NCBI GenBank assembly: GCA_017450925.1
Contig: JAFSSS010000002.1
Coordinates: 1 to 47,806 of the forward strand
Length of the DNA stretch: 47,806 nucleotides
Source of the DNA: Ruminococcus sp.
GTDB taxonomy: Bacteria; Bacillota; Clostridia; Oscillospirales; Ruminococcaceae
Direction: 5' to 3'
The position numbers and the translations under genes were made by a program. Within the stretch, counting starts at the first letter, position 1. Each line of letters opens with the position of its first letter. Under the pieces are notes generated by a model. That model made no database searches. It had not been told where the DNA came from and worked only from the letters and a program-made list of their open reading frames with translations. Below, piece by piece: positions 1 through 36,028 of the stretch.

Positions 1-1
1 A

Positions 2-256
2 GCGCGCGGTCAAGCCTCGCGCCAGAGGCTTGCGGGGTCAAGGGGCAGCGCCCCTTGCAGGGCGTGGGACAGCGTCCCACTCGGCGCGATAGCGACGACC
101 CGGCGCTGCACAAAAAAACAAAAGGGCATAAAAGTGAAATCCGACTTCAACAGCAATGAGGACACACCAAATTGCAGCGCCGGAAAAGCCACCCTCCCGC
201 ACTCGCAGGAAACAGCAAGGGAGCGAAGCGACCGCGCGCATTTCCGTCCGGTGACG
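2..256. repeat. Mosaic hairpin repeat, copy A
   Basis: This is one of five related intergenic copies in the window. From left to right it has a hairpin CAAGCCTC/GAGGCTTG (11-18/25-32), a triloop hairpin CAAGGGGC-AGC-GCCCCTTG (39-57), and a triloop hairpin GTGGGAC-AGC-GTCCCAC (64-80). Next come an 11-bp inverted repeat CCGGCGCTGCA (100-110) and TGCAGCGCCGG (173-183) around a 62-base core, and then an arm ending near TTTCCGTCC. Several short open frames cross it but none has a ribosome binding site. The window begins inside or at the edge of the repeat, so its left end may be incomplete. Confidence 0.85.
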
Positions 257-560
257 AACCAAAGCATAGCGCAAACATGGCTTATACGATTGTAGGCGGC
301 GAGCTGGACGATGTGTTAAACCTGCGTGCGCCGCCCCGTTTGGGGGCTTTCCAGTCGTCTCCAAGCCCCTTCGGAATGCAAACTATTTCAAAGTGTGGGA
401 ACAGCTCAAGCCAACGTGAGAGAGCATCTAACGAGCCTCGGTCGAAAGAATGCGAGCGTCCCACGTCACATCACGAAAAGCCGCACGGACGCGGCACAAC
501 AACTACATCACGAAACCAACCCAAGCCCCCCAGAGGGGGGCGCAGCGTGAACTAAAAAGG
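257..560. other. Non-coding stretch upstream of the decarboxylase
   Basis: No convincing gene is visible. An ATG at 276 opens a 93-codon frame, but it has no ribosome binding site and its C-terminal half is low-complexity (Ser, Arg, Thr, Pro). A G/C hairpin (CCCCCC-AGA-GGGGGG, about 526-540) resembles the triloop hairpins of the adjacent repeat. I cannot assign the rest. It could be the far end of a longer repeat or a decayed element. Confidence 0.4.
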
Positions 561-590
561 GCGCGGAGCGTGAAATAAGAAGGTGGATTT

Positions 591-1928
591 ATGTCAGATA
601 CCCCTATCAGCGATTTTGTCAGGAGCTACAACGAGAGCGGCACCGTCCGTATGCATATGCCCGGTCACAAGGGGCACCCCCTCTTGGGCCCCGAAGTGCT
701 GGATATAACCGAGATCAAAGGCGCCGACTTCCTGTTTGAGGCAGAGGGCATTATCCGTAAGAGTCACGGCAGGGTGAACGAACTCTACGGATCAATGCGG
801 TCTCTCTTCTCGACAGAAGGCTCCTCGCTTTCGATCAAGGGTATGCTCGCCGCCGCAAGAGCTTTCCTCGGTGCCGATGCTAAATTTGCCTCCGCCCGGA
901 ACTGCCACCGCGCTTTCCTCAACGGCTGCATCCTGCTCGGTATCGACCCGGTCTGGATCTTTCCCGGGAAAACCTCAACATCGGTCTGCGCCTCCGAGGT
1001 GACCCCTGCGGACGTTGCACGGGCTCTTGACGCTGACCCGATGATAAAGGCGGTATATATCACCTCTCCCGATTATTTCGGAAATATGTCGGATATCCGC
1101 GGGATAGCAGAGGTGTGTCACAGCCGCGGGGCGCTGCTGCTGGTGGATAATGCTCACGGCGCTTATCTGAAATTCGCCGGCGAGGGGCTGCATCCTCTTG
1201 ACCTCGGAGCGGACATCTGCTGCGACTCTGCGCACAAAACGCTCCCTGCTCTGACCGGGGCGAGCCTGCTGCACATTTCAAAGGGTGCGCCGGACTGGCT
1301 GGCGGAACACGCGGCCGCAGAGATGTCGCTGTTTGCCTCCACAAGTCCGAGCTATGTGATAATGCAGAGCATCGAGCGGTGTATGCATGAACTGAAAAAC
1401 GGTCTTGCCGAGGGGATAAGGGACTGCTGCCGGCAGGTCTCGGAATGCCGTAAAAGGCTGGTGGCTGCGGGCTTTGAGCTTATCGGTGACGAGCCCATGA
1501 AGCTTACCGTTTCGGCGGCGGCAAAGGGTTACACCGGCGAGGAGCTTGCGGGATATCTCCGGGAGCATAATATAGAGCCGGAGTATGCGGACAGGCTTTA
1601 TGTGGTGCTTATGCCCTCGCCCTTTAACCGTCCCGGAGAGCTTTTGGCGGTGACCTCGGCGCTGGAGGCGCTGCCCGGCCGTGGGGCGGCGGTCATATGC
1701 GATGACCCGGTCATCACTGTGCCTAAGAAGGCAATGTCCCCGCGCGAGGCGTATTTCCGGCCTTTCAGCCGCATTGCGGTCGAAGAGGCAGAGGGCAGGG
1801 TCTGTGCCAGAACGGCTATGTCCTGTCAACCGTCCGTACCTGTTATCGCGGGGGGAGAGGTCTTCGACAAAAAAATTATAAAAATTCTGAAAAACTATGG
1901 AATTTTCTTTGCAGATGTGATAGAATAG
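591..1928 (+). CDS. Orn/Lys/Arg decarboxylase-family PLP enzyme (YaaO-like)
   Basis: This is a 445-residue fold-type I PLP enzyme of the major Orn/Lys/Arg decarboxylase family, in the short form found in Firmicutes (Bacillus YaaO/SpeA-like) without the N-terminal wing domain of the E. coli enzymes. Near the N terminus it has MPGHKG (about residue 23). The PLP-lysine motif is SAHKTLPALTG with Lys near residue 216, preceded by the cofactor Asp in DNAHG. A C-terminal domain follows. The start has a good site (AGAAGGTGG). It lies 49 bases upstream of darA, the order seen at the yaaO locus. Lysine, arginine and ornithine cannot be told apart by eye, and many YaaO proteins lack a tested substrate. 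Confidence 0.88.
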   Translation: MSDTPISDFVRSYNESGTVRMHMPGHKGHPLLGPEVLDITEIKGADFLFEAEGIIRKSHGRVNELYGSMRSLFSTEGSSLSIKGMLAAARAFLGADAKFASARNCHRAFLNGCILLGIDPVWIFPGKTSTSVCASEVTPADVARALDADPMIKAVYITSPDYFGNMSDIRGIAEVCHSRGALLLVDNAHGAYLKFAGEGLHPLDLGADICCDSAHKTLPALTGASLLHISKGAPDWLAEHAAAEMSLFASTSPSYVIMQSIERCMHELKNGLAEGIRDCCRQVSECRKRLVAAGFELIGDEPMKLTVSAAAKGYTGEELAGYLREHNIEPEYADRLYVVLMPSPFNRPGELLAVTSALEALPGRGAAVICDDPVITVPKKAMSPREAYFRPFSRIAVEEAEGRVCARTAMSCQPSVPVIAGGEVFDKKIIKILKNYGIFFADVIE

Positions 1929-1977
1929 AATAAGGCATAGGCTAAGTGCGGCCTTACTCTTTTTCGGAGGTAATGAT

Positions 1978-2301
1978 ATGAAGCTTGTATATGCGATAGT
2001 AAACGACGACGATACATACGCGGTCAGCAAGGAGCTGCAAAAGCACGGCATCAGAGCCACGAAGCTGGCATCCACCGGCAGCTTTCTTTCAAGGGGGAAC
2101 ACCACCTTTATGATCTGCTGCAAGGATGACGAGGTTGAAACGGTCATCGAAAGCTGCCGCAGCCACTCCCGCAGGCGCAAGCAGGTGGTATCGGCAAGCA
2201 CGATCTCGGAGGGGACGATGAGCCTCGGGCAGCCGGTAGAGGTAACTATCGGCGGAGCGACGATCTTTGTCACCGACATCGAGAGATTTGAGCAGGTCTG
2301 A
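1978..2301 (+). CDS. darA: Cyclic-di-AMP receptor DarA (YaaQ/PstA)
   Basis: This 107-residue protein belongs to the PII-like YaaQ/DarA/PstA family, cytosolic trimers that bind c-di-AMP. It matches the family in length (about 109) and in conserved stretches: the MKLVYAIV start, KLASTGSFL (about residues 30-38), the GNTT/TFMI segment, and the C-terminal GGATIFV strand. The ribosome site is CGGAGG before ATG 1978. The stop is one base before the holB start, so the two are probably co-translated. The downstream partner of DarA is not known in most species, and nothing here identifies it. Confidence 0.92.
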   Translation: MKLVYAIVNDDDTYAVSKELQKHGIRATKLASTGSFLSRGNTTFMICCKDDEVETVIESCRSHSRRRKQVVSASTISEGTMSLGQPVEVTIGGATIFVTDIERFEQV

Positions 2302-2302
2302 C

Positions 2303-3280
2303 ATGAAGCTTTATTCAAACGAAGAGAACAAGCGGCTGATCTCGCTTTTGACCGCCAAGGGGCGAGAGCCTCACTCGGTGATAATCACCGGCGAGAGGGG
2401 CTCCGGGCGCAGGACGCTGGGGAAATACTTAGCGGCAGCGCTGATGTGTGAAAGGCGCTCCGGCGAGCCCTGCGGGGTCTGCAAGAGCTGCCGTATGCTG
2501 GAGGACGGAAATCATCCCGACTTCATCACGGCTAAGGCCAACGAAAACGGCAACTATAAGCTGGACGACATACGGGCACTGGTATCGGACTCGGTCATCA
2601 AGCCCAACGAGGGGGATCTCAAGGTCTATATGATACCGGAGCTTGACCGCTCGGTGAACACGGCGGTGCCGGTACAGAACGTACTGCTGAAATTCATTGA
2701 GGAGCCGCCCGACCACTGTGTTATCATACTTACGGCGGCGACCAAGGAGATATTTCTTCCCACGGTGATATCCCGGTGCATAACTCTCGGGACGCAGCGC
2801 TGCCGCCGAAGCGATGCGGAGCAGTGGCTGACGGTACAGGGCGGCTACGGACAGGATGACATAATCCGGGCGGTGAGCTGCTGCGGCGGGAATTTCGGGC
2901 GGTGTCTTGAATTTCTCAACGGCAAGGAGCTGCCCTTGGCCTTTGAATGTGCTAAGGCGGTCTCGGCGGGGATGCTCCGCAGGGACGAATATCTTATCCT
3001 TAAAGGGCTTTTCATGTGCGACGGCCAAAAGGCGGTACTGCGGCAGGCGCTGGTCTTTCTGTCGGAGATACTGCGGGGGGCTTGTCTTATCAGTCTTGGA
3101 GAGAAGCCGGAGGACTGCTGCTTTGAAAACGGAGCGGAGCAGCTTGCCGCCTCTCTCGGCAGCGGCAGGAGCCAAGAGCTTTACCGGCTGATGACCGACT
3201 ACATCGGGCGGCTGGACGCAAACTGCAATCAGTCTCTGACCGTCAACTCGCTGACGGGGGAGATATTTGTCAGACTGTAA
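2303..3280 (+). CDS. holB: DNA polymerase III delta' subunit
   Basis: This 325-residue AAA+ clamp-loader subunit belongs to the DnaX complex that loads the sliding clamp. I chose ATG 2303, one base after the darA stop, over the longer in-frame start at 2267, which would overlap darA by 35 bases. Visible features are a P-loop-like GERGSGRRT (about residues 31-39, with Arg in place of the usual Lys, as expected for a non-hydrolysing delta'), a zinc module of four Cys (CERRSGEPCGVCKSC, about residues 50-64), and the KFIEEPP and SRC motifs. darA, holB and ricT follow in the order known from Bacillus, but tmk and yaaR are absent between them. Confidence 0.92.
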   Translation: MKLYSNEENKRLISLLTAKGREPHSVIITGERGSGRRTLGKYLAAALMCERRSGEPCGVCKSCRMLEDGNHPDFITAKANENGNYKLDDIRALVSDSVIKPNEGDLKVYMIPELDRSVNTAVPVQNVLLKFIEEPPDHCVIILTAATKEIFLPTVISRCITLGTQRCRRSDAEQWLTVQGGYGQDDIIRAVSCCGGNFGRCLEFLNGKELPLAFECAKAVSAGMLRRDEYLILKGLFMCDGQKAVLRQALVFLSEILRGACLISLGEKPEDCCFENGAEQLAASLGSGRSQELYRLMTDYIGRLDANCNQSLTVNSLTGEIFVRL

Positions 3281-3331
3281 GCAGCATTCAATGCACAATT
3301 CTTACATTATACAGATAGACGGAGGTCAAGT

Positions 3332-4195
3332 ATGTTAAAGATAATCGGAGTAAGGTTCAAGTCGGTGGGGAAGATATATTATTTCGACCCCGCGGGACTG
3401 GATATAAAAATGGGTGACAAGGTCATCGTGGAGACCGCAAGAGGCGTTGAGTGCGGAGATGTGGCTCTCACCGACAGGGAGATAGACGAGACAAGGTTTT
3501 CAAGCCCGCTGAAGAAGGTCATCAGAGTGGCCACAAAGCAGGACTTCGCACAGATCGAGCGCAACAAGAAAAAGGAGGCAGAGGCCTTTGAGATCTGCCA
3601 GCAGAAGATCGCCGCTCACAAGCTGAAGATGAACCTTATAGAGGTGGAGTGTACCTTTGACAACAGCAAGCTGCTGTTCTACTTCACCGCCGAAAACAGG
3701 GTGGATTTCAGAGAGCTTGTCAAGGATCTGGCTTCGGTGTTCCGCACAAGGATAGAGCTGCGGCAGATAGGCGTAAGGGACGAAGCCAAGATGCTGGGAG
3801 GCCTCGGCATCTGCGGACAGCCCTTCTGCTGCTCACGGTTTTTGGGAGAGTTCCACCCGGTGTCAATAAAAATGGCAAAGGAGCAGTCGCTTTCGCTCAA
3901 TCCCACGAAGATCTCCGGCACCTGCGGGAGACTTATGTGCTGTCTGAAATACGAGCAGGACAGCTACGAGGAGCTTTACCGCACCACTCCGAAGGCAGGG
4001 TCGGTAGTCAAGACGGCAGAGGGCAAGGGCATCGTGGAGGATGCCAACCTTCTGACGGGCAAGCTAAGGGTCAAGATAGACAAGAGCGACAACGTCATCA
4101 CCGTGAGCAAGGACGAGGTCGAGGTCATCAAGGCTGGTGTGGAGCGCGTGAGCAGAAACGAAATGAAAGCCCTCAAGGGACTGGAGGACAACTGA
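3332..4195 (+). CDS. ricT: PSP1-domain protein RicT (YaaT)
   Basis: This 287-residue PSP1 family protein is the RicT/YaaT component of the RicA-RicF-RicT complex, which in Bacillus assists RNase Y-dependent mRNA maturation and affects sporulation and competence. The family-typical cysteine cluster is clear: CGQPFCCSRF, then SGTCGRLMCCLKYE (about residues 160-210). These cysteines are known to bind iron-sulfur clusters in the Ric complex. The start has an ACGGAGG site. It follows holB by 51 bases. yabA, usually next in Bacillus, is replaced here by a deaminase gene. Confidence 0.92.
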   Translation: MLKIIGVRFKSVGKIYYFDPAGLDIKMGDKVIVETARGVECGDVALTDREIDETRFSSPLKKVIRVATKQDFAQIERNKKKEAEAFEICQQKIAAHKLKMNLIEVECTFDNSKLLFYFTAENRVDFRELVKDLASVFRTRIELRQIGVRDEAKMLGGLGICGQPFCCSRFLGEFHPVSIKMAKEQSLSLNPTKISGTCGRLMCCLKYEQDSYEELYRTTPKAGSVVKTAEGKGIVEDANLLTGKLRVKIDKSDNVITVSKDEVEVIKAGVERVSRNEMKALKGLEDN

Positions 4196-4254
4196 CCGCG
4201 GCTTTGTGCGGAGCGCTGCAGGCTGCAACGTAATAACAGAAAGGGAGCAGATAC

Positions 4255-5535
4255 ATGATACGGTTTAAGAACGGCAATGTGCTGACTATGGACGGCGGCT
4301 GCGCTGTTGAGAGCAAGGAAGTATGGGTCGAGGGCGACAGGATATGCTTTGTGGGCAAGCCCACGGACGAGCAGCTAAAGGCTGCGGTATTTGAGAGGGA
4401 ATTCGATCTGGACGGAGACCTGCTGATGCCGGCCTTAAAGAACGCCCACACTCACTCGGCGATGACCTTTCTGCGGTCATACGCGGACGATCTGCCTCTG
4501 CAGCAGTGGCTGTTCGACAGGGTCTTCCCGCTGGAGGCAAAGCTGACTGGAGAGGACGTTTACTGGTTCGCACGGCTGGCGATACTGGAATATCTGACGA
4601 GCGGTGTTTCTGCCAGCTTTGATATGTATTTCAAGCTGGACGACTATGTAAAGGCGAACATCGACAGCGGGTTCAGAACTGTAATGTGCCACGCGGTATC
4701 GGGGCCGGGAGAGAGAGTAAAGGAGGTCGAGGAGTGCTATCTGAAATTCAACGGGATGCACCCGCTGATCGGCCTGCAGCTGGGCTTCCACGCAGAATAC
4801 ACTGCAAGCTATGAGCTTATGGAGAACCTCGGGGGGCTGGCGGAAAAGTACAAGGCGCCGGTGTCGATGCACAGCTCGGAGACAGACAGCGAGGTAGCGG
4901 ACTGCATAAAGCGCTGGGGCAAGACGCCCACACAGCTGTTTGACAGTCTGGGGCTTTACAACTACGGCGGCTCGGCCTATCACTGCGTACACGTTACGGA
5001 GGAGGACGAGCGGATACTGGCAGAGCGCGGGGTATGGGTGGTAACGAACCCCTGCTCGAATGCGAAGCTGATAAGCGGCACAGCCCCCATTGCGGAAATG
5101 GATCGCAGGGGCATAAGGCTGGCTATCGGAACTGACGGCCCTGCCTCGAACAACGCGCTGGATATGTTCAGAGAGATGTATCTGCTGTCGGTGCTGCAGA
5201 AGCTGAAGGAGGCAGATGCCACTGCTATGCAGCCGGAGAGGATACTTGAAATGGCCTGCCGAGGCTCGGCGCTTGCCATGGGGCTTGACGACTGCGACTG
5301 CATTGCACAGGGCAAGCAGGCAGATCTGATAGTTATAGACATGAAGCGGCCGAATATGCAGCCGGTACACAACATCCCGAAGAACCTTATCTACAGCGGC
5401 TCAAAGGAGAACGTGAGGATGACAATGGTAGCGGGAAAGGTAAGGTATCTTGACGGAGAGTTTTTCGTAGGCGAGGACGCCGAGAGGATATACGCCAAGT
5501 GCAACGAACACACACAGGAACTGATAAAGAGATAA
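4255..5535 (+). CDS. mtaD: 5-methylthioadenosine/S-adenosylhomocysteine deaminase
   Basis: This is a 426-residue amidohydrolase of the TRZ/ATZ group, a cytosolic metal-dependent deaminase acting on MTA and SAH. The metal site is visible as KNAHTHSAM (about residue 62), a histidine in LGFHAEYT (about 178), HSSETDSE (about 205), and the catalytic DGPASNN (about 294). The length fits the family. The start has a GGGAG site. It ends just before a strong terminator, closing the + strand block. Guanine or other aminohydrolase activity cannot be excluded, but the motif spacing fits MtaD best. Confidence 0.85.
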   Translation: MIRFKNGNVLTMDGGCAVESKEVWVEGDRICFVGKPTDEQLKAAVFEREFDLDGDLLMPALKNAHTHSAMTFLRSYADDLPLQQWLFDRVFPLEAKLTGEDVYWFARLAILEYLTSGVSASFDMYFKLDDYVKANIDSGFRTVMCHAVSGPGERVKEVEECYLKFNGMHPLIGLQLGFHAEYTASYELMENLGGLAEKYKAPVSMHSSETDSEVADCIKRWGKTPTQLFDSLGLYNYGGSAYHCVHVTEEDERILAERGVWVVTNPCSNAKLISGTAPIAEMDRRGIRLAIGTDGPASNNALDMFREMYLLSVLQKLKEADATAMQPERILEMACRGSALAMGLDDCDCIAQGKQADLIVIDMKRPNMQPVHNIPKNLIYSGSKENVRMTMVAGKVRYLDGEFFVGEDAERIYAKCNEHTQELIKR

Positions 5536-5540
5536 AGCAA

Positions 5541-5572
5541 AACGGGCTGTCGGGTGACAGTCCGTTTTTTTG
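5541..5572. terminator. Terminator between mtaD and tex
   Basis: The stem ACGGGCTGTC/GACAGTCCGT is followed by seven T on the + strand, with an A-rich run on the left side. It lies between the convergent mtaD and tex genes and could serve both strands. Confidence 0.85.
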
Positions 5573-5591
5573 TACATTTTATACTGCCGTA

Positions 5592-7807: not shown

Positions 7808-7820
7808 GCCTATACGCCGA

Positions 7821-12378: not shown

Positions 12379-12589
12379 AATGGGGAACTCCTTTCGTGGA
12401 TATCCATACATTCCTTTTTGATTGTAGCACATTTATATTGAAATTGCTATAGGATATTTTTGCTATATATAAGTATATTGACGGTTTTTCTGTGAAACTA
12501 TTGCAAAATCGGGTGGAGTGGGTTATACTATAGGAGTAGCCTTTGTTTGCTTAGGGCGGCGGGGGTGCGGGGTGTCGGTTATGTTTGGG

Positions 12590-12862
12590 CTCCGGCTTTG
12601 TGGTTCTGTGAACGGAAATACGCGCGGTCGCTTTGCTCCTTTGCTGTTTCCTGCGGGTGCGGGAGGACGGCTTTTTCCGGCGCTGCATTTTGTTTGTCCC
12701 CGTTACTTGGGATGTGACCTCCTGCTGCTGCGGCCTTTCGGTTCTTTGTGCAGCGCCGGGTTGTCTCGCTTTCGCGAGCCAAGTGGGACGCTGTCCCACA
12801 CCCTGCAAGGGGCTCTGCCCCTTGACCCCGCAAGCCTCTGGCGCGAGGCTTGACCGCGCGCT
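12590..12862. repeat. Mosaic hairpin repeat, copy B (inverted)
   Basis: This is the reverse orientation of copy A and very similar to it. The core is bounded by CCGGCGCTGCA (12677-12687) and TGCAGCGCCGG (12749-12759). The hairpins GTGGGAC-GCT-GTCCCAC (12783-12799), CAAGGGGC-TCT-GCCCCTTG (12806-12824) and CAAGCCTC/GAGGCTTG (12831-12852) follow. It lies between the divergent CotH and CxxC-protein genes. A long open frame crosses it without a ribosome site. Confidence 0.85.
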
Positions 12863-12942
12863 TTTTAATTCGCTTCGCGGTCGTTCCCCCTATGCTTTTC
12901 TGCAATTATCAACTATCAACTATATTAGAGATGAGGTTTGTT

Positions 12943-17183: not shown

Positions 17184-17403
17184 GGTATTCACTATCCTAA
17201 TTTAACATTTTCTATTGTGCAATATGCAAAAAACGAAACAGGGTTAATTTGTGCAATTTCACATCCGGGAGATAGTATAGCACTTTAGGGAGAAGTTTGC
17301 AATGAAATAAAATTGTATCAAAAATAAACTTTCTATAAAGCAAACGTTTTCGGGTCAGCAGGGAGACAGAGTAGGCGGAACGAACAAAGCTGGTGGAAAG
17401 AGA

Positions 17404-17708
17404 CGCGAAGCGCATTCCGCAGTCCAGGGCGCGGTAGCCCTGGCGGGTCAAGGGCAGAGCCCTTGCAGGGACGGGGGCAGAGCCCCAGCGGGGTCAAGGG
17501 GCAGAGCCCCTTGCAGAGTGTGGGACAGCGTCCCACTTGGCTCGCGGCAGCGAGACAATCCGGCGCTGCACACAGTAACAAAAGGGCATCACAGTAGAGA
17601 CATAATCTAAAGCTGCAAGGACAAACAAACTGCAGCGCCGGAAAAAGTTGTCCGTCTGCACTCGCAGGAAAGAGCGTTAGCGATTTTCCGTCCCGTAGGA
17701 ACACAAAG
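17404..17708. repeat. Mosaic hairpin repeat, copy C
   Basis: Same orientation as copy A but with a longer hairpin array: CAGGGC/GCCCTG (17425-17442), CAAGGGC-AGA-GCCCTTG (17449-17465), GGGGC-AGA-GCCCC (17474-17486), CAAGGGGC-AGA-GCCCCTTG (17495-17513), GTGGGAC-AGC-GTCCCAC (17520-17536) and CTCGC/GCGAG (17541-17554). The core is bounded by CCGGCGCTGCA (17560-17570) and TGCAGCGCCGG (17631-17641). Confidence 0.87.
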
Positions 17709-17769
17709 CCGGAGCGCTAACGGGAACGGTGCAAGGCGGAGCTTGTGCGGTCGGTTGCGATGTTGTGCG

Positions 17770-18068
17770 ATACGGCTTTGCGTTCTACGGACGGAAATAC
17801 GCGCGGTCGCTTCGCTCCCTTGCTGTTTCCTGTGAGTGTGGGAGGTCAACTTTTCCGGCGCTGCATTTGGTTTGTCCCCGTAACTTGGGATGTGTGTACC
17901 TGCTTTTGTGCCCTACTGTTTTCTTTGTGCAGCGCCGGTCGTCGCTAACGCGCCGAGTGGGGCTCTGCCCCAAACCCCGCTGGGGCTCTGCCCCCGTCCC
18001 CGCAAGGGCTCTGCCCTTGACCCGCCAAGGGCTACCGCGCCCTTGGATGGGCGGAACGCGCTTTGCGG
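17770..18068. repeat. Mosaic hairpin repeat, copy D (inverted, next to C)
   Basis: This is in the opposite orientation to copy C and about 60 bases from it, making a large inverted pair. The core is bounded by CCGGCGCTGCA (17855-17865) and TGCAGCGCCGG (17938-17948). GGGGC-TCT-GCCCC hairpins (twice), CAAGGGC-TCT-GCCCTTG, and CCAAGGGC/GCCCTTGG around the same six-base loop sequence as copy C follow. Confidence 0.87.
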
Positions 18069-18094
18069 TTTGGGTTACAGCTCCTTCTGTATGC

Positions 18095-18132
18095 AAAAAC
18101 CTCCTGCACCGCTTTTTATGCAGTACAGGAGG
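18095..18132 (-). terminator. Terminator of glnN
   Basis: On the minus strand CCTCCTGTACTGC pairs with GCGGTGCAGGAGG over 13 bp (with G-T pairs) around ATAAAAA and is followed by TTTTTG. It lies just after the glnN stop at 18151. Confidence 0.9.
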
Positions 18133-18150
18133 CATTTCTGGTTTTTTTGC

Positions 18151-20229
18151 TTACATCACATAGAAAAGCAATGCGCCGTAGGTGGGATAAGGCCAATATT
18201 TTTCGCCTACAAGTGACTCTATGCCGTCAGCAGAGGTGCGAAGATCGGTCATAGCGGCAAACACCCTGTCGTGGAAGCAGTTGGCCTGCGCCTCGATGTC
18301 CGTGATCTCTCTGCACTTCTCCAGCTCCTTCTCAAGCACACCAAGCTTGCGGTAGGTGTCGGAGGCATAGGCGGAAATGCGCTGTACCATGTCACGCTCG
18401 AAGCTGTTGTCAGCACCAAAGGTCTCGGCAAGCTGGGCAGTCTGCGACAGATCCTTTATGTAGGACGCCGCGGCGGGAAGAATGTCCTTCTTGACCATAT
18501 CTATCATCGTGAGAGCCTCGATCTTCAAGGTCTTGCAATACTCGTCAAGAATGATCTCGACACGGCTTTTCAGCTCGGCGGCGGAATAGACACCGTATTT
18601 TGAGAACATCTCAACATTCTTGGGAGCGGTGAAGCAGGGGACGGACTCGGGGGTCGATCTAAGATTGAGCAGACCGCGCCTTGCGGCCTCGGCCTCCCAG
18701 TCGGCAGAATAGCCGTTGCCGTTGAACACGATGCGGGAGTTTTCCTTATACTCGCGCTTGATAAGCTCGTCCAGCGCCTCGCGGAAGTTTCCGGCAGAGC
18801 CAAGCTCGTCGGCGAACTTATCGAGGGTGGCGGCTACGATAGTGTTTATGACTGTGATAGGGCCGCCGCAGGAGAGCCTTGAACCGGGCATTCTGAACTC
18901 GAACTTATTGCCCGTAAAGGCAAAGGGCGAGGTACGGTTGCGGTCGGTAGTATCCTTGGGGAAATGGGGGAGGACGTCCACGCCTATCTCCATTTCAACG
19001 CGCTTGCCCTCGTACTTATCGCCGTGAGCGAGAGCATCGAGGATGCCTGTAAGCTCGTCGCCGAGGAAGATAGAGATTATAGCGGGGGGAGCCTCGTTAG
19101 CGCCGAGGCGGTGGTCATTTCCGGCGGTGGCAACAGAGGCTCTCAAGATATCCTGATAATCGTTGACGGCCTTGATTATAGCCACGAGGAACAGCAGGAA
19201 CTGGGCATTCTCGGCGGGAGTTTTTCCGGGGTCTAAAAGGTTCACACCGGTATTGGTGGAAAGCGACCAGTTATTATGCTTGCCGGAGCCGTTTATTCCG
19301 GCGAAGGGCTTTTCATGGAGGAGGCACTTGAAGCCGTGCTTGCGAGCGGTGCGCTTCATGATCTCCATAGTGAGCTGGTTATGGTCGGTGGCGACGTTGG
19401 CGGTATCGTAGATCGGAGCCAGCTCGTGCTGACAGGGGGCGACCTCGTTATGCTTGGTCTTGGCTAAGATGCCAAGTCTCCAGAGCTGTTCATCAACGTC
19501 CCGCATATAGGCGGCGACGCGAGTCTTTATGGTGCCGAAGTAATGATCCTCAAGCTCCTGCCCCTTGGGAGCGGGGGCGCCGAAGAGGGTACGGCCGGTG
19601 AAGATAAGGTCTTTACGGTGGGAGTACATTTCTCTGTCAACGAGGAAATACTCCTGCTCGGCGCCGCAGTTGGCGATAACGCGGGTGGCGCTGGAGCCGA
19701 ACATTTTCAGGATGCGCAGAGAGGCGCGGTTTATGGCCTCCATAGACTTGAGCAGGGGGGTCTTTTTATCGAGAGCCTCGCCGTTATAGGAGCAGAAGGC
19801 TGTGGGGATACAGAGGGTCTTCTCCTTTATGAAGGCATAGGAGGTAGCATCCCACGCGGTATAGCCTCGCGCCTCGAAGGTCGCGCGGAGGCCGCCGGAG
19901 GGGAAGGAGGAGGCATCGGCCTCGCCCTTGATAAGCTCCTTGCCCGAGAAATCCATGATAACGCTGCCGTTTTCGGCGGGGGTGATAAAGCTGTCCAGCT
20001 TTTCGGCGGTCAGGCCGGTCATAGGCTGGAACCAATGGGTATAATGGGTCGCGCCCTTTTCGACTGCCCAGTCCTTCATAGCATTGGCGACAACATTTGC
20101 CAGATGTATATCCAGCGGGAGCCCCTCGGCTATAGTCTTTTTGAGCGCCTTATAGGTATCCTTGGGGAGTTTCTCCCGCATTGCCCTATCGTCGAACACA
20201 TCGCTTCCGAAAATCTCGGGTACGTTCAT
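18151..20229 (-). CDS. glnN: Glutamine synthetase type III
   Basis: This is a 692-residue type III glutamine synthetase, the large dodecameric form of anaerobes that makes glutamine from glutamate, ammonia and ATP. Seen in order are the family start (VPEIFGSDVF), THYTHWFQPMTG, the AEQEYFLVD metal site (about residue 220), the CQHELAPI segment, the ATP loop GINGSGKHNNWS (about residue 310), and the C-terminal FNGNGYSADW. The start has GAGGAGG. It lies 32 bases downstream of the DUF308 gene, so it may be co-transcribed with it. No GlnR-type site or riboswitch is evident. Confidence 0.96.
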   Translation of the reverse strand: MNVPEIFGSDVFDDRAMREKLPKDTYKALKKTIAEGLPLDIHLANVVANAMKDWAVEKGATHYTHWFQPMTGLTAEKLDSFITPAENGSVIMDFSGKELIKGEADASSFPSGGLRATFEARGYTAWDATSYAFIKEKTLCIPTAFCSYNGEALDKKTPLLKSMEAINRASLRILKMFGSSATRVIANCGAEQEYFLVDREMYSHRKDLIFTGRTLFGAPAPKGQELEDHYFGTIKTRVAAYMRDVDEQLWRLGILAKTKHNEVAPCQHELAPIYDTANVATDHNQLTMEIMKRTARKHGFKCLLHEKPFAGINGSGKHNNWSLSTNTGVNLLDPGKTPAENAQFLLFLVAIIKAVNDYQDILRASVATAGNDHRLGANEAPPAIISIFLGDELTGILDALAHGDKYEGKRVEMEIGVDVLPHFPKDTTDRNRTSPFAFTGNKFEFRMPGSRLSCGGPITVINTIVAATLDKFADELGSAGNFREALDELIKREYKENSRIVFNGNGYSADWEAEAARRGLLNLRSTPESVPCFTAPKNVEMFSKYGVYSAAELKSRVEIILDEYCKTLKIEALTMIDMVKKDILPAAASYIKDLSQTAQLAETFGADNSFERDMVQRISAYASDTYRKLGVLEKELEKCREITDIEAQANCFHDRVFAAMTDLRTSADGIESLVGEKYWPYPTYGALLFYVM

Positions 20230-29545: not shown

Positions 29546-29638
29546 ACAAATCCCCTCCGTTTCAGTTCATGCCGGGCGCTTGGTTCTGTTTTGCGATGCG
29601 GCTGATATGCCGCCTGCACAAATACATATTATTAAGTA

Positions 29639-29667
29639 ATTGTACACCATATTTTAGGCTAATTCAA
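29639..29667 (-). promoter_or_regulatory. Likely promoter of the V-ATPase operon
   Basis: On the minus strand TTGAAT (29667-29662), a 17-base spacer, and TACAAT (29644-29639). It is the best match upstream of the first V-ATPase gene, about 90 bases from its start. Confidence 0.6.
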
Positions 29668-29867
29668 TAACATTTTTGAAATATTTAAGGCTGCCGGCGG
29701 GATTTTGTTTACTATGACCAAGAGTCAGAAATAAGGTGGAGCAATTTTGTTGACTTTGTGCAATATCATGAATATCGGGTTCTGCAATTGTGCGAAATGC
29801 ACATTGACCTTATGCAAAAACCCTGTTTATTTGTCGGGGTAAGGTGTAAATAATATGTTTCTGACTA

Positions 29868-29896
29868 TTGACAAAGGGGGCGGATTGTGTTATATT
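29868..29896 (+). promoter_or_regulatory. Promoter of the ACT protein and homoserine dehydrogenase genes
   Basis: TTGACA (29868-29873), a 17-base spacer and TATATT (29891-29896). It is about 40 bases upstream of the GTG start at 29940. The bases before it show no clear riboswitch or T-box. Confidence 0.8.
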
Positions 29897-29939
29897 TGTA
29901 TTTGTCGCAAGCACACTTGTTTTTCGGAGGTGGACTGTT

Positions 29940-30383: not shown

Positions 30384-30406
30384 TCAAGAACAGGAAGGTT
30401 TTGAAA

Positions 30407-31645: not shown

Positions 31646-31657
31646 AAAACAGACAAG

Positions 31658-31695
31658 GCACCTCTGCCGGGGAAAGAAAGGCAGAGGTGCTTTTT
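31658..31695 (+). terminator. Terminator of the hom operon
   Basis: GCACCTCTGCC (31658-31668) pairs with GGCAGAGGTGC (31680-31690) and is followed by TTTTT. The arm sequence belongs to a terminator family repeated at 33645, 42094 and 42539. Confidence 0.92.
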
Positions 31696-31703
31696 GCTTA
31701 TCA

Positions 31704-31820
31704 ATGCAAAATGCACAATGCCCAGTCTCACGTTCCGTGAGACCGCACGATCAAAGGAGTGCGCCTCCGGCACACAGATGCCCATTCGGGCGCTCCTTCA
31801 TTATCAACTGTCCATTAACT
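31704..31820. repeat. Chimeric remnant of two repeat families
   Basis: The left part (TGCACAATGCCCAGTCTCACG, 31713 onward) is the left arm and loop of the 19-bp palindrome family. After GTGAGAC it switches to GGAGTGCGCCTCC, GGGCGCTCCTTCATTATCAACTG, the right end of the ATTATCAACT family. Both look truncated. Confidence 0.6.
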
Positions 31821-31844
31821 AAACATTGTGCGGCCGGTGGTGAC

Positions 31845-31873
31845 TTGACAATTCATGTTATTTGCGGTATAAT
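31845..31873 (+). promoter_or_regulatory. Promoter of the 210-residue protein gene
   Basis: TTGACA (31845-31850), a 17-base spacer and TATAAT (31868-31873), all consensus. The start codon at 31920 follows AAAGGAG. Confidence 0.9.
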
Positions 31874-31919
31874 AACAAAAGCATGATACTGACCTAATTT
31901 CCGCAAAGGAGTTTTACTT

Positions 31920-32552
31920 ATGAAAACAAATGTTATTCCTATCAGAAGTGATCTGGCCGGCAAGGACAAGGCGCTTAGAGAGGCTGAAAAGTTTGCCGAA
32001 TACAACGACCTCACCGGCAAGAACTCTATGCATCTGCGTTTGCTCACCGAGGAGACGCTTAGCATGGTTCACGGCATCGTAAGCGATTTTCAAGGCAAGC
32101 TCTGGTTTGAGAGCCTTGATATGACGGACAGCATACTCTGCCGGATCTGTGTTTCTGCCAACAAGGACGTTGACATGAAGCAGGAGGAGCAGCTGCTTTC
32201 GGTATCGACCTCGGGCAAGAACGTGCGTGCCAAGGGCATCATGGGCAAGATAAGAGAGATGTTCCGGGTAAGTATGCAATGCTCTGCGGACGGCACCTAC
32301 AGCGGCAGCGCTATGCAGGACTCCTGGTACAGAATGGGGACGCACTATGACCCTATGGCATACAATTCGGCTTTGACCGACGGCTACTGGTCGCTGCAGC
32401 GCTACCGTGAGAACATCCAGAGCAACGAGGAGTCGGAGGAGGAATGGGACGAGCTGGAGAAATCCATTGTCGGAAAGCTGGCAGACGAGGTCAAGGTAGG
32501 ACTTCTTAGCGGCCTGGCAGAGGTCATCATCGAAAAGAAATTCATGAAATAA
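31920..32552 (+). CDS. Uncharacterised protein, 210 residues
   Basis: I do not recognise this family with certainty. It is a soluble protein without a signal peptide or membrane helix. Residues 38-60 (MHLRLLTEETLSMVHGI) resemble the first helix of GHKL/anti-sigma-type ATP-binding domains, and STSGKNVRAKGIMGKI (about 97-112) could be a decayed later motif, but the Asn of the N box and a DxGxG loop are missing. The C-terminal region (about 160-185) is strongly acidic. It has its own perfect-consensus promoter and a terminator, so it is a single-gene unit and probably well expressed. Confidence 0.65.
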   Translation: MKTNVIPIRSDLAGKDKALREAEKFAEYNDLTGKNSMHLRLLTEETLSMVHGIVSDFQGKLWFESLDMTDSILCRICVSANKDVDMKQEEQLLSVSTSGKNVRAKGIMGKIREMFRVSMQCSADGTYSGSAMQDSWYRMGTHYDPMAYNSALTDGYWSLQRYRENIQSNEESEEEWDELEKSIVGKLADEVKVGLLSGLAEVIIEKKFMK

Positions 32553-32592
32553 GGGCGGCGCGGAATGCGCTGACTATACAGCAATAAAAAAA

Positions 32593-32627
32593 CAAGGTAT
32601 TCGCTCTGCGGACACCTTGATTTTTTT
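32593..32627 (+). terminator. Terminator after the 210-residue protein gene
   Basis: CAAGGT (32593-32598) pairs with ACCTTG (32614-32619), with a further TTCGC/GCGGA inner stem. It is followed by a run of seven T and preceded by seven A, so it could also act for the opposing HTH gene. Confidence 0.85.
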
Positions 32628-32688
32628 ATAGTTGGCAGTTGATCGCAATCCTTCATTGTGCATTGAAAACGTCACAGCGGTGTTGTTA

Positions 32689-33501
32689 TCAATATGTTTC
32701 GGAGATATGCGTGCGCTCGCTCTTTATCCTCTCCAGCATTGGGAGGTAGTACTGCTCAAGCTCGCTCAAAAGCGCTTTTTCCTGCGGGGTCACCTCCGGG
32801 CGGGTGTCGGGGTGCAGCCGGCCGTCGCTGTAAAGCTCAAAGCCCCGGGCAGAGGTAGAGGCCGCACCGTCGGACACAACACCGACAAAGTAACGGTCAT
32901 CCCATGGGAACATATCCTCGCTGTAATTCACATCAAGGTAATACTCGCTGCCCCCTACCGTGACCGGCTGTGTACGCCGCAGAACATATACCGCGCTGAA
33001 GCGGCTGCCGGCAGGGACTCTTATGGAAAGTGCAGCTTCAGCGCCGTCAACCTCAACTGACCTATAGAACGTTCTGCCGCCGAATTCGCCCTCTGACTCG
33101 GCATTGTATTCAGCATAGGCTGCCTTGGTCAAGGGGTCTATCACCCTGCTCTGAAAGCTGTGCTTCATGATCTCGTAGGAAAGGAAAAGCACCGCGATCA
33201 GAATTAGCAGTATAAGACCTGCCAGCTTGACCCTGCTGAATCGCCGTTTGCTCGGGAGTGCGAGCGCAGGAGCGCTTATGCTTTCATGGGCGGGGCTGCC
33301 GCTTTTGACCACCTCGCTGACGTCTGTACCGAGGGCTTCCGAGAGGGACTCCAGCATACCAAGCTCCGGCAGATTGCTGCCGGTCTCCCAGCGGCTGACC
33401 GTCCTTGCCGACACCCCCAGCTGCTCGGCAAGCTGCTCTTGAGTAAGAGCCTTATCTCTCCTAAGCTGTTTCAAATATTCACCGATCTTGATCTGATCCA
33501 T
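32689..33501 (-). CDS. Membrane-anchored XRE-type HTH regulator
   Basis: This is a 270-residue one-component regulator. Residues 5-62 are a Cro/C1-type helix-turn-helix (LKQLRRDKALTQEQLAEQLG, then SARTVSRWETG and LSEALGTDVSEV). A single membrane helix lies at about 92-112 (LAGLILLILIAVLFLSYEIM). The C-terminal 155 residues are predicted to be outside the cell and have no family I recognise. The start has GGAGGCGG. It stands alone, opposing the gene at 31920, so its target genes cannot be read from context. Confidence 0.85.
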   Translation of the reverse strand: MDQIKIGEYLKQLRRDKALTQEQLAEQLGVSARTVSRWETGSNLPELGMLESLSEALGTDVSEVVKSGSPAHESISAPALALPSKRRFSRVKLAGLILLILIAVLFLSYEIMKHSFQSRVIDPLTKAAYAEYNAESEGEFGGRTFYRSVEVDGAEAALSIRVPAGSRFSAVYVLRRTQPVTVGGSEYYLDVNYSEDMFPWDDRYFVGVVSDGAASTSARGFELYSDGRLHPDTRPEVTPQEKALLSELEQYYLPMLERIKSERTHISETY

Positions 33502-33644
33502 TTCTGCCGCCTCCTTTCACGGATAATTATACACATCAAGGGCGGGAAAGTCAACGACACAGAGCAGGACATTTGGTGTCTGCTCTGCGAAAGAGCATAA
33601 ATCTTATCGCCGGAGGCGACAGCTTGCTTATTCTTTATAAGAAG

Positions 33645-33677
33645 AGACACCTCTGCCGTGATACAGCAGAGGTGTCT
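33645..33677 (-). terminator. Terminator-like hairpin after the SPFH operon
   Basis: AGACACCTCTGC (33645-33656) and GCAGAGGTGTCT (33666-33677) form a perfect 12-bp stem just after the SPFH stop at 33700. The minus strand continues CTTCTTATAAAG, a weak T-rich tail. The arms match the repeated terminator family. Confidence 0.7.
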
Positions 33678-33699
33678 TTGATCAAACAAGTTTTATTGG

Positions 33700-34644
33700 T
33701 CACTGAACGTCCTTAGGGGTCTCTGTGATAACGCCCTTAAGACCGGCTGCGAGACCGGCGATGCCCTGTATCTCGCTGGGGATAATGATCTTGGTAGCCT
33801 TGCCGTCGGCGGCCTTTGCGAAGGCCTCGAGGCTCTTGAGAGCGATGACGTTCTCGGAGGGGTTGGCCTGATTCAGCTTTACAAGGCTGTCGGCCAGAGC
33901 GCGCTGTACCATTTCGATAGCCTGCGCTTCACCCTCGGCCTCCAGAATCTTCTGCTGCTTGACGGCATCGGCCTGGAGGATCTTGGACTCTCTCTCGGCC
34001 TCGGCGCGGAGGATCTTGGATTCCTTTTCACCCTCGGCCACAAGGATCTGAGACTTCTTCTCGGCCTCGGCCTGAATTACCTTTTCACGTCTTTCACGGT
34101 CGGCCTTCATCTGCTTTTCCATAGCATCTCTGATCTCTGCGGGAGGCAGGATGTTTTTCAGCTCGACTCTCTGCACCTTGATGCCCCAGCGGTCGGTAGC
34201 CTCGTCGAGGATCTTGGTGATATTGGTATTGATGAAGTCACGGGAAGTGAGGGTAGCCTCGAGATCCATATCGCCGACGATATTTCTGAGCGTAGTGGCT
34301 GTAAGGTTCTCGATAGCGGAGATAGGTCTTTCAACGCCGTAGGTGAACTGCATCGCGTTGGTGATCTGGAAGAACACAACGGTGTCGATCTGCATGGTTA
34401 CGTTATCCTTGGTGATAACGGACTGGGGCTTGAAGTCAACGACCTGTTCCTTGATAGACACCTTCTTGGCGATCTTGTCGATGAAGGGTATCTTGACATG
34501 GAGGCCGGTCGTCCATGCGGCATGGAAAGCGCCGAAGCGCTCGACTACATAGACATAGGCCTGCGGAACTACCTTGATGTTTGAGATTATCACCAAGAGA
34601 ATGAATGCTGCGACGATAAGCGCAATGATTAACGGTGTTTCCAT
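33700..34644 (-). CDS. SPFH/Band 7 (stomatin-like) membrane protein
   Basis: This is a 314-residue SPFH protein of the stomatin/QmcA type. It has an N-terminal membrane helix (about 3-24), the SPFH domain (about 28-200, with YVVERFGAFHAAWTTGLH and RVELKNILPPAEIRDAM), and a long Glu/Ala/Arg coiled coil (about 200-265, repeated ESKILRAEAE-like units). Such proteins form ring-shaped oligomers that organise membrane domains and partner with NfeD proteins. I chose ATG 34644 with GGAGG upstream. It is the third gene of an NfeD-SPFH-SPFH operon. Confidence 0.93.
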   Translation of the reverse strand: METPLIIALIVAAFILLVIISNIKVVPQAYVYVVERFGAFHAAWTTGLHVKIPFIDKIAKKVSIKEQVVDFKPQSVITKDNVTMQIDTVVFFQITNAMQFTYGVERPISAIENLTATTLRNIVGDMDLEATLTSRDFINTNITKILDEATDRWGIKVQRVELKNILPPAEIRDAMEKQMKADRERREKVIQAEAEKKSQILVAEGEKESKILRAEAERESKILQADAVKQQKILEAEGEAQAIEMVQRALADSLVKLNQANPSENVIALKSLEAFAKAADGKATKIIIPSEIQGIAGLAAGLKGVITETPKDVQ

Positions 34645-34664
34645 AAATTCTTTACCTCCGATTT

Positions 34665-35162
34665 TTAGATTAAAGAAAGCTCGGTGAGCTTTATTTCCGA
34701 CACATTCAGCCCCCACTGCTCCGCGGCGGCGGAGACTGCGCGAAAGACTGTTTTTTCGATCGTATCCTGCGACTTAACGGCATCGCCGGCACTGACTGCC
34801 GAGATGACGTTTCTGAAGGCTGTGAGAGTAAGGCTGCTAAGAGCGGCAGGGGTATTTTCGGTACTGCAGCTATATTTTTGAGCATCTGTCACAGAGAAAC
34901 GTATCAAAGCCGAGAGGCGCAGTGAAACTTGGTCGGCCGAGACTGCCGCAGCCTTTTCAAGCGGCAGGCACTGCGGCGCGAGGCTGATCTTAGCGATGAC
35001 TTTATCGAGGAGGGGCACAACGAAATGCACGCCCTCGCCGTAGGACGCATAGAACGAACCCATTCTTTCCACGACGAACACTGTTTCCGGGGGGACTTTT
35101 TTGAATGATGCGGCTGTCATCACAATTATGACGGCGGCCAGTGCAATAAAGGCATAGATCAT
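34665..35162 (-). CDS. Short SPFH protein lacking the coiled coil
   Basis: This 165-residue protein is a paralogue of the N-terminal half of the downstream SPFH protein: membrane helix (about 2-18), PPETVFVVERMGSFYASYGEGVH, and the conserved end WGLNVSEIKLTEL. It then stops, without the 100-residue coiled coil used for oligomerisation. The stop is clean and no continuation in another frame is seen before the next start 20 bases away. Its start overlaps the NfeD stop in ATGA style. It could be a shortened functional partner or a decaying duplicate. Confidence 0.85.
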   Translation of the reverse strand: MIYAFIALAAVIIVMTAASFKKVPPETVFVVERMGSFYASYGEGVHFVVPLLDKVIAKISLAPQCLPLEKAAAVSADQVSLRLSALIRFSVTDAQKYSCSTENTPAALSSLTLTAFRNVISAVSAGDAVKSQDTIEKTVFRAVSAAAEQWGLNVSEIKLTELSLI

Positions 35163-35599
35163 GATGTTTGCTTAGACACTATCAGCTTTGTGCCGTCAAC
35201 CATTTTGACGGTAACGACAGCGTCCTTTTCAATCTCGGAGCCGTCCTCCGAGCGGGCAGCCCAGTCAGTGCCGTCCAGCTTTACGCGCCCCTCGCCGAGG
35301 GCATTGTTTATAGGCTCGATGACACGGGCGGTCTTGCCTATATCAAGCTCAAAGTTCGTGGCATATCTTCTGCCCTGCATTTTCTTGACGAGCGGCCGTG
35401 TAGCGATAAGTATGACAGCTGAAAGGCCGACGAACATGACCATTTGCCACACAAAGCTGATATCGGCTATTGCAAAGAACATAGCGCCCAGCGAGCCTAT
35501 GGCAAACCACACCGAGACCAGTGCATTGGCTGTTGCGATCTCTGCAACGACGAACACTACGAAGCACACTGCCCAGAAGATGACCATTGTTGTATCCAT
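35159..35599 (-). CDS. NfeD-like membrane protein
   Basis: This is a 146-residue short NfeD protein with two to three N-terminal membrane helices (about 4-70, VIFWAVCFVVFVVAEIA onward) and a C-terminal OB fold (about 85-146, with GKTARVIEPINNALGEGRVKLDGTDWAARS). NfeD proteins act with SPFH proteins, matching the two genes that follow. I chose ATG 35599 with GGAGG upstream; the longer open frame starts in the AT-rich leader. The last four bases overlap the next start. Confidence 0.9.
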   Translation of the reverse strand: MDTTMVIFWAVCFVVFVVAEIATANALVSVWFAIGSLGAMFFAIADISFVWQMVMFVGLSAVILIATRPLVKKMQGRRYATNFELDIGKTARVIEPINNALGEGRVKLDGTDWAARSEDGSEIEKDAVVTVKMVDGTKLIVSKQTS

Positions 35600-35754
35600 T
35601 CCTCTTTCCTCCTTTTCCTTTTTGGTACAGGATATCTGTCTGATGCTTATTATATCATATATGTTAAAATTTTTCAATAGTTTTCATATATTTTTTTGTC
35701 GGAGCGCCGGGGGAGTTGATGTTTTGCGGGGTGGAAAAATGCTGCAAAGCAAGC

Positions 35755-36028
35755 CGCGAAGCGCGTTCCGCAGTCCAGGGCGCGGTAGCCCTGGCGGGGA
35801 CGGGGGCAGAGCCCCAGCGGGTCAAGGGCAGAGCCCTTGCAGAGTGTGGGACAGCGTCCCACTCGGCGCGCCAGCGACGACCGGCGCTGCACAAAGAAAC
35901 AAAAGGGCATCACAGTAGAGACATAAACTAAAGCTGCGGGGACAGACCCAATGCAGCGCCGGAAAAACGCAGGCCTCCGTACTTACAGGAAAGAGCGATA
36001 GCGATTTTCCGTCCGTAGAACACAAAAC
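35755..36028. repeat. Mosaic hairpin repeat, copy E
   Basis: Same orientation as A and C. The array has CAGGGC/GCCCTG, GGGGC-AGA-GCCCC, CAAGGGC-AGA-GCCCTTG and GTGGGAC-AGC-GTCCCAC. The core is bounded by CCGGCGCTGCA (35881-35891) and TGCAGCGCCGG (35952-35962). The arm ends with TTTTCCGTCCGTAG. It lies between the SPFH operon start and the export-family gene. Confidence 0.87.

What the first reader, a model, noticed from the sequence alone, without database searches (positions are those of the whole stretch)
1..36028. Five-copy mosaic intergenic repeat with a conserved 11-bp inverted boundary
Copies at 2-256, 12590-12862, 17404-17708, 17770-18068 and 35755-36028 share one architecture: a hairpin array, CCGGCGCTGCA, an AT-richer core of 60-72 bases containing an AAAGGGCAT-like segment in copies A, C and E, TGCAGCGCCGG, and an arm ending near TTTCCGTCC. 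All 11-bp boundaries are identical in five of five copies, while cores and arms vary. All lie between genes, in both orientations. Open frames cross them but have no ribosome sites. I do not recognise this as a named family. It could be a mobile non-autonomous element, a structured RNA, or a nucleoid/protein-binding element like E. coli BIMEs.
Basis: partly seen in the sequence, partly recalled or inferred. Interest (0 to 1): 0.8.

Follow-up and report, generated by a model that had tools for sequence, protein, structure and literature searches.

The report
Ruminococcus hairpin-array repeats after genes
Rumen Ruminococcus genomes carry dozens of copies of a roughly 300-base folded repeat that usually sits shortly after genes, resembles the REP/BIME repeats of other bacteria, and may be spread by a tamed transposase gene lodged in the ruvA-ruvB DNA-repair operon.

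Summary
In detail: all ten 11-bp boundaries are exact, and the 66.6%-complete genome holds 32 strong copies. Nine of 16 genus genomes match, with 2 to 69 matches each; one genome of another genus holds a diverged tail-to-tail pair of the same layout. Each copy is one unit: hairpin array, 11-bp stem with a ~60-nt loop, hairpin arm. Between species stems change while staying paired. It is directional: collinear contexts 50 versus 14, usually shortly after a stop codon with the array first, so probably a 3'UTR. It turns over: a site empty in two sister species, strain alleles differing by one hairpin unit, an apparent core swap. A RAYT-like HUH gene lies between ruvA and ruvB in 6 of 9 element-bearing genus genomes and was not found in the 7 others. 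In one element-free species the array hairpin occurs once, inside a RAYT-like ORF. Best reading: a composite REP/BIME-like element, possibly RAYT-propagated. That link is correlational, confined to one clade, and absent in the other-genus carrier. No Rfam family matches.

The parts
1..283 (+). Copy 1, cut at its left end by the contig start: array hairpins 11-32, 39-57, 64-80; boundary stem 100-110 / 173-183; loop 111-172; right arm 184-249 (long type)
   Evidence: C65:100-249, E 9e-30
12588..12885 (-). Copy 2 (minus strand): boundary stem 12749-12759 / 12677-12687, array to the right, right arm (long type) to the left
   Evidence: C65:12610-12759, E 2e-29
17380..17720 (+). Copy 3, left member of a tail-to-tail inverted pair: five array hairpins plus a CTCGC hairpin, stem 17560-17570 / 17631-17641, short arm to 17693
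   Evidence: RNA fold -133.8 kcal/mol, z -4.5
17765..18085 (-). Copy 4, right member of the tail-to-tail pair (gap 96 between the modelled parts): stem 17928-17938 / 17855-17865, long arm from 17789
35740..36040 (+). Copy 5: array from about 35755, stem 35881-35891 / 35952-35962, short arm to 36014
   Evidence: RNA fold z -3.6 on + strand, -2.8 on - strand
17192..18151 (.). Intergenic region holding the pair; the orthologous intergenic regions of G009 and G002 are about 710 and 726 bp shorter and lack both copies (empty site)

Best explanation
It is a composite, non-autonomous REP/BIME-like repeat of Ruminococcus (with at least one diverged relative in another genus), about 300-340 bp long. 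Anatomy, 5' to 3' on the A-rich strand: a left cap palindrome; an array of about 3-6 near-perfect GC hairpins with recurring loop types (C-AGA-G, C-AGC-G, C-GNNA-G); a 10-11 bp stem closing a U-poor loop of about 60 nt; and a compound hairpin arm ending near TTTCCGTCC. Shown here: dispersal, turnover, and placement mostly shortly after stop codons with the array first. Inferred step 1: in RNA the array caps the 3' end of the upstream transcript, as E. coli REP/BIMEs are thought to do, impeding 3' exonucleases; it is not, as a rule, an intrinsic terminator on that strand. Inferred step 2: copies are spread or remodelled as single-stranded DNA hairpins by a single-copy RAYT-like HUH tyrosine nuclease encoded between ruvA and ruvB, with recombination between copies swapping hairpin units and loops.
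For: Unit: on loci of five genomes 157 of 159 array hairpins lie in element spans, but those loci were chosen by core; genome-wide in G000, 23 hits to one array hairpin, 20 in elements and 3 at contig ends (my reading of the coordinates). Structure: 320 array hairpins from 128 flanks, 64 distinct, 2282 Watson-Crick pairs; boundary stem 96% of cells paired, two pairs changed on both sides, slid controls 16-67%; in G149, another genus, an 11-13 bp stem of different sequence closes loops of 57 and 60 nt beside the same kind of array. Direction: of 93 copies with a called gene on both sides '>E>' 50, '>E<' 21, '<E<' 14, '<E>' 8; collinear test p 7e-6, and 46 versus 11, p 3e-6, without duplicates and inverted pairs. 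Turnover. RAYT: PF01797 and best NCBIfam NF047646 (REP_Tyr_transpos) in 6 of 6; ruvA, RAYT, ruvB in that order in 6 of 6. In G011 the only CAAGGGCAGMGCCCTTG of the held assembly lies in frame inside a RAYT-like ORF; a RAYT-like ORF of another genus (L286) also contains and abuts hairpins.
Against: No element lies on the fetched stretches around the six ruvAB RAYT genes. The NF047646 score is below cutoff (38 versus 80 bits for G000). Among genomes placed by ruvB, RAYT and full elements occur in one clade only, so the association may be one event. G002 has elements but no RAYT; G006 and G013 have elements but no ruvB in their assemblies. G149 carries the layout but is not among the 11 genomes with a RAYT-profile match (it was searched, judging by its handle number). 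No target-site duplication or exact end could be defined. No GTAG tag is apparent at hairpin feet (my reading). In 22 of 93 copies the left gene does not read into the element. Strand test not significant: G.U 14 versus A.C 1 overall, 6 versus 1 on distinct hairpins, p 0.125; a broader count gave 34 versus 23, p 0.18. Terminator-like U-run hairpins are commoner on the - strand (array 21, core 27, arm 3) than on + (array 8, core 8), so a role for the other strand is not excluded. The core-swap alleles could be an assembly artefact.
Confidence: 0.55

Rival explanations
1. A cis-acting structured RNA element of 3'UTRs, kept and homogenised by selection plus gene conversion, not by a dedicated transposase.
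For: Orientation bias toward the upstream gene; paired changes on both sides of the stem; G.U over A.C trend on + strand (not significant); three sites occupied in both G000 and G012 with copies of each species' own type; allelic core difference at identical flanks; an other-genus carrier without a RAYT-profile match.
Against: Only 3 two-flank matches were found among 32 G000 and 49 G012 copies, which are not complete sets. A site of G000 is empty in G009 and G002. A copy sits next to a phage portal gene. A regulatory RNA would be expected beside the same genes in most species.
Confidence: 0.24
2. A MITE of an ordinary DDE transposon, with the 11-bp inverted repeats as terminal repeats (the 82-85 bp core) inserted into older hairpin arrays.
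For: Perfect 11-bp inverted repeats flanking a variable core; allelic difference centred on the core.
Against: Arrays were not found as pre-existing sites without the core, except one core-less copy in G000 and one array remnant in G001; no duplication flanks the core (sequence); the A-rich linker and arm outside the repeat are conserved across species.
Confidence: 0.08
3. A nucleoid or topoisomerase binding element (gyrase/IHF-like role as for E. coli BIMEs).
For: Stem sequence conserved beyond what pairing needs (6 of 10 pairs never vary in 40 chosen copies); tail-to-tail pairs.
Against: No binding data; the direction bias relative to one flanking gene is not predicted for a symmetric DNA-binding role; the stem sequence differs in G149.
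Confidence: 0.07

Closest known systems
REP / BIME elements and REPINs (GTAG- and CGTC-tagged REPs, PMC3733652; REPINs, PMC3116915)
   Same: Dispersed extragenic palindromes, mostly downstream of ORFs in collinear or convergent contexts, inverted dimers, variable stems, likely transcribed, often linked to a RAYT. (PMC3733652: I read the abstract, sections 6 and 15 and search passages. PMC3116915: only its listing.)
   Different: Unit of about 300 bp, not 20-40 bp; a hairpin array plus an 11-bp stem with a ~60-nt unpaired loop plus an arm; no GTAG foot tag seen; Clostridia; strongly directional; the RAYT is not next to copies.
RAYT / TnpA_REP tyrosine transposases (PF01797; NCBIfam NF047646; class 2 TnpA-Y1, PMC6006769)
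   Same: HUH motif (PNHxH) and a conserved Y-I-x-x-N; single copy; relatives in G011 and G075 contain or abut hairpins.
   Different: Below the NF047646 cutoff; sits between ruvA and ruvB without flanking repeats. In section 10 of PMC6006769, the only section I read, Clostridia are named only for subclass 1.1 (TnpA IS200).
BOX elements of Streptococcus pneumoniae (recalled, no call)
   Same: Mosaic modules with variable internal units, intergenic, structured when transcribed.
   Different: Not compared by any search; architecture as recalled is different.
Rfam families (release 15)
   Same: None.
   Different: At gathering threshold only two tRNAs in the window; on seven loci from G000, G002, G005, G006, G009, G012, G013 three sub-threshold hits at E 0.61-0.99, all on L053.

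Membership tests
REP/BIME (RAYT-associated) | Dispersed, extragenic, many copies | tested here: met
   32 strong copies in 2.03 Mb; up to 69 matches in a relative; intergenic by my gene calls
REP/BIME (RAYT-associated) | Located downstream of ORFs, collinear or convergent rather than divergent | tested here: met
   85 of 93 not divergent; left gene reads into the element in 71 of 93
REP/BIME (RAYT-associated) | Inverted dimers | tested here: met
   8 of 8 pairs closer than 600 bp are tail-to-tail among 110 copies; also one pair in G005 (coordinates) and one in G149
REP/BIME (RAYT-associated) | Unit of 20-40 bp with unpaired GTAG or CGTC tag at one end | tested here: not met
   Unit about 300 bp; no GTAG foot seen at array hairpins; CGTCC at the arm end in 60 of 110 copies, CGTAC in 37, other or none in 13
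REP/BIME (RAYT-associated) | Dedicated RAYT gene flanked by the repeats | tested here: inconclusive
   RAYT-like gene present in 6 of 9 carriers of the genus but not flanked; in G011 the array hairpin lies inside a RAYT-like ORF; none found in G149
RAYT protein family | Y1/HUH domain with H-x-H and conserved Tyr | tested here: met
   PF01797 in 6 of 6; PNHxH and Y-I-x-x-N invariant in 6 of 6
RAYT protein family | Over the curated NF047646 cutoff | tested here: not met
   38.2 bits versus 80 for the G000 protein; best-matching NCBIfam family, hit by 6 of 6
RAYT protein family | DNA cleavage activity on the repeats | not testable with these tools
   needs a bench assay
MITE with 11-bp terminal inverted repeats | Inverted repeats are the ends, flanked by target duplications | tested here: not met
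   Conserved array and arm lie outside the repeats
Known Rfam structured RNA | Match to a family model | tested here: not met
Intrinsic terminator | GC hairpin followed by U-run on the strand co-directional with the upstream gene | tested here: not met
   + strand calls inside copies: array 8, core 8 over 110 copies, some outside the unit proper; - strand calls are more frequent: array 21, core 27, arm 3

The most novel reading that the evidence does not exclude
A RAYT taken into the ruvA-ruvB operon works with Holliday-junction processing on cruciform-forming repeats. It keeps a population of modular 3'UTR hairpin arrays turning over, with the loop between the 11-bp arms exchanged like a cassette between copies: a Gram-positive REP system coupled to recombination machinery.
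Probability: 0.15. Interest if true: 0.78.

Novelty: new variant of a known kind. Interest (0 to 1): 0.52.

Why it matters
In the REP survey I read (PMC3733652) most REP families are in Proteobacteria. A composite version in rumen Clostridia, with a RAYT-like gene fixed between ruvA and ruvB, gives a series of species (gene and many copies; apparent gene scar and few copies; neither) for testing how REP populations arise and what they do to mRNA. Copies also seem to break metagenome assemblies: many matches in this genus lie at contig ends (coordinates).

Tried and rejected
Tried without result: Rfam. Plasmid and phage records searched with copy 5 only, no match. Literature searches for Ruminococcus repeats gave nothing relevant among the papers listed (one search listed 10 of 267); RAYT with Firmicutes gave one unrelated paper. 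Target-site duplications could not be read because the empty sites are too diverged. Terminator idea rejected for the + strand, although a few cores in G012, G009 and G002 hold long near-perfect hairpins. MITE-with-11-bp-ends idea rejected. A right-arm regex was faulty and is not used. The first G.U versus A.C count included non-array hairpins; one search is restricted to array loop types; both are reported. Gene context uses my own small codon-usage gene finder; 17 of 110 copies lacked a called gene on at least one side and are outside the 93. A2 holds 40 copies that I picked by hand from six genomes, so one search is not a random sample.

Searches show a tail-to-tail pair of the same layout with another stem sequence, so the family is not confined to the genus, and since no RAYT-profile match is listed for G149 I lowered the best explanation from 0.58 to 0.55, the novel case from 0.17 to 0.15 and raised the RNA rival from 0.22 to 0.24. 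I had also put array starts about 185 nt left of the stem; copies 3 and 5 show about 156 and 126.

Outside the genus: first model 0 of 45 genomes; second model 3 of 148 family genomes, two of them G000 and G014 and the third G149. Both runs used strict filters. Three viral contigs matched the boundary pattern; only L340 is a real copy.
Full report
WHAT IS THERE. All ten 11-mers are perfect and far above shuffle expectation. The window is the whole of contig C65 of a 2.03-Mb, 66.6% complete draft genome. An exact-boundary scan gave 25 pairs and 0 for the control. A covariance model built from 24 of those 25 (the one cut by a contig end left out) found 43 matches in the genome at E up to 1. Of these, 32 have E below 1e-20 (one cut by a contig end); the other 11 are weaker and mostly lie beside strong copies.

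ONE UNIT. Read on the A-rich strand, each copy has a left cap (ACGCGAAGCGCATT-like), several GC hairpins, the 11-bp stem with its loop of about 60 nt, an A-rich linker and a compound hairpin arm. Hairpin units are swapped in and out between copies. On the loci of five genomes, 157 of 159 array hairpins lie inside element spans, but those loci were chosen because they hold a core. The fairer test is genome-wide in G000: 23 hits to one array hairpin, 20 in elements and 3 at contig ends. A second hairpin pattern led to one G000 copy with its core deleted (C23) and an array-only remnant in G001. The 11-mers are therefore internal to a larger unit.

DISTRIBUTION. With the second model, 9 of 16 genomes of the genus have matches at E up to 0.01: G000 40, G002 7, G005 3, G006 69, G007 2, G009 20, G012 65, G013 15, G014 26. 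The second matched 3 of 148 family genomes: G000, G014 and G149, a genome of another genus. In G149 I found two copies, tail to tail. Beside the first lie hairpins CAGCCTTTTCTAAAGGCTG, CAAGGGGGCGGCGCCCCTTG and TCGCCCGTCGCAACGGGCGA, and each copy has an 11-13 bp stem around GCACCGCACAC closing a loop of 57 or 60 nt (model scores 26.2 and 19.0 bits). So the layout is older than the genus, or shared with another genus by transfer, with the stem sequence changed on both sides.

STRUCTURE. In 40 hand-picked copies from six genomes the boundary stem is paired in 96% of cells. Two of ten pairs are changed on both sides (T-A to G-C in G002; G-C to A-T chiefly in G000), six never vary, five rows lose the innermost pair, and slid controls give 16-67% paired. 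Over 128 left flanks I counted 320 array hairpins, 64 distinct, with 2282 Watson-Crick pairs; non-canonical were G.A 25, G.U 14, A.C 1, G.G 1. G.U exceeding A.C would suggest the + strand RNA, but on distinct hairpins it is 6 versus 1 (p 0.125) and the earlier broad count was 34 versus 23 (p 0.18). Folding of copy 3 gives z -4.5; copy 5 gives -3.6 on + and -2.8 on -.

DIRECTION. With a small gene finder of my own, 93 of 110 copies have genes called on both sides: '>E>' 50, '>E<' 21, '<E<' 14, '<E>' 8. Collinear contexts favour the element pointing with the genes, 50 to 14 (p 7e-6); after removing allelic duplicates and inverted pairs it is 46 to 11 (p 3e-6). The median distance from an upstream stop codon to a point 140 nt left of the stem, about where arrays start, is 40-41 nt; the median gap on the right is 217-271 nt. 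So the unit begins within some tens of bases of the stop codon. Terminator-like U-run hairpins are rare on the + strand inside copies and commoner on the - strand. [quoted passage not shown]

TURNOVER. The site of the window's inverted pair is empty in G009 and G002, where the orthologous intergenic region is about 710 and 726 bp shorter. Between G000 and G012 three sites match on both flanks and carry copies of each species' own type (L006/L088, L041/L100, L016/L113), so either old copies are homogenised or sites are re-used. In G012 two contigs share identical flanks but have quite different loops and a few array differences; this could be an assembly artefact. Three other redundant contig pairs in G012 showed no such difference. 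A viral-collection contig (L340) is a 98.9% identical strain allele of the G000 C72 locus over 1322 bp; its array has one more hairpin unit and its right tail fewer tandem units. That copy lies upstream of a portal gene; in a relative (L343, 63% portal identity) the gene ending there is followed almost directly by the portal gene. Copies closer than 600 bp are tail to tail in 8 of 8 cases among the 110.

A CANDIDATE ENZYME. PF01797 over the genus gave strong IS200-like hits in some genomes and a weaker, single-copy class with open frames of 178-206 aa in G000, G005, G007, G009, G012 and G014. A profile of the six finds these six at E below 1e-108, with far weaker hits in G011, G004, and second genes of G014 and G009. 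In all six the order is ruvA, this gene, ruvB. Its best NCBIfam family is REP-associated tyrosine transposase, hit by 6 of 6 but, for the G000 protein, below cutoff. Of seven element-bearing genus genomes with ruvB assembled, six have it; in the seventh, G002, ruvA and ruvB are separated by a short spacer with sequence like both ends of the gene, which I read as a deletion scar (inference). Of six element-free genomes with ruvB (G001, G003, G004, G008, G010, G011), none has it there. G006, G013 and G015 have no ruvB match in their assemblies, only distant AAA+ hits. The ruvB tree puts all RAYT carriers, G002 and G001 (element-free but for one array remnant) in one clade and the other five element-free genomes in another, so this may be a single historical event. 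More direct: in G011, which lacks the element, the array hairpin CAAGGGCAGMGCCCTTG occurs once in the held assembly, in frame inside a RAYT-like ORF. A RAYT-like ORF of another genus (G075) also contains and abuts hairpins. Against the link: no element flanks the ruvAB gene, and G149 has the layout but no listed match to the RAYT profile.

JUDGEMENT. Shown: a real, dispersed, composite, directional, turning-over repeat with conserved pairing and no Rfam match. Inferred: action as a 3'UTR hairpin cap, and propagation or remodelling by the RAYT-like protein. It works like REP/BIME elements; it does not meet their size-and-tag definition, so I call it a new variant of that kind. My paper searches did not turn up a description of it; they cover an open-access library only.

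Noticed in passing
G000:C55:26682-27257 (L247, L274) and orthologous loci L252-L256: Single-copy RAYT-like HUH gene between ruvA and ruvB in six Ruminococcus genomes; apparent deletion scar in G002.
   Followed up: yes
L277 (G011 C131), L286 (G075 C79): RAYT-like ORFs that contain REP-like hairpins in frame inside the coding sequence.
   Followed up: partly
L421 (G149 C8), stems near 3667-3745 (-) and 3226-3307 (+): Tail-to-tail pair of the same layout in another genus, with a different stem sequence.
   Followed up: partly
G000 C23:4641 (L335); G012 L081, L092, L090, L095; G009, G002 and G006 copies: A second small palindrome with centre like CCTCGACAAGCTCGG and variable stems sits inside array hairpins, like a nested insertion.
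   Followed up: no
L018 (G000 C72) and L340 (IMG/VR contig): A copy of the element lies just upstream of a phage portal gene, so copies may ride on prophages.
   Followed up: partly
G012 L083, L090, L091, L104; G009 L119, L120, L123, L124; G002 L128: Some cores hold a long near-perfect hairpin in the loop (terminator-like in G012), unlike the usual U-poor loop.
   Followed up: partly
G000 L018, L020, L021, L012: Tandem copies of a right-arm segment trail the element; their number differs between strain alleles at the L018/L340 locus.
   Followed up: partly
window 42314-42385 and 42394-42466: Two adjacent tRNA genes.
   Followed up: no
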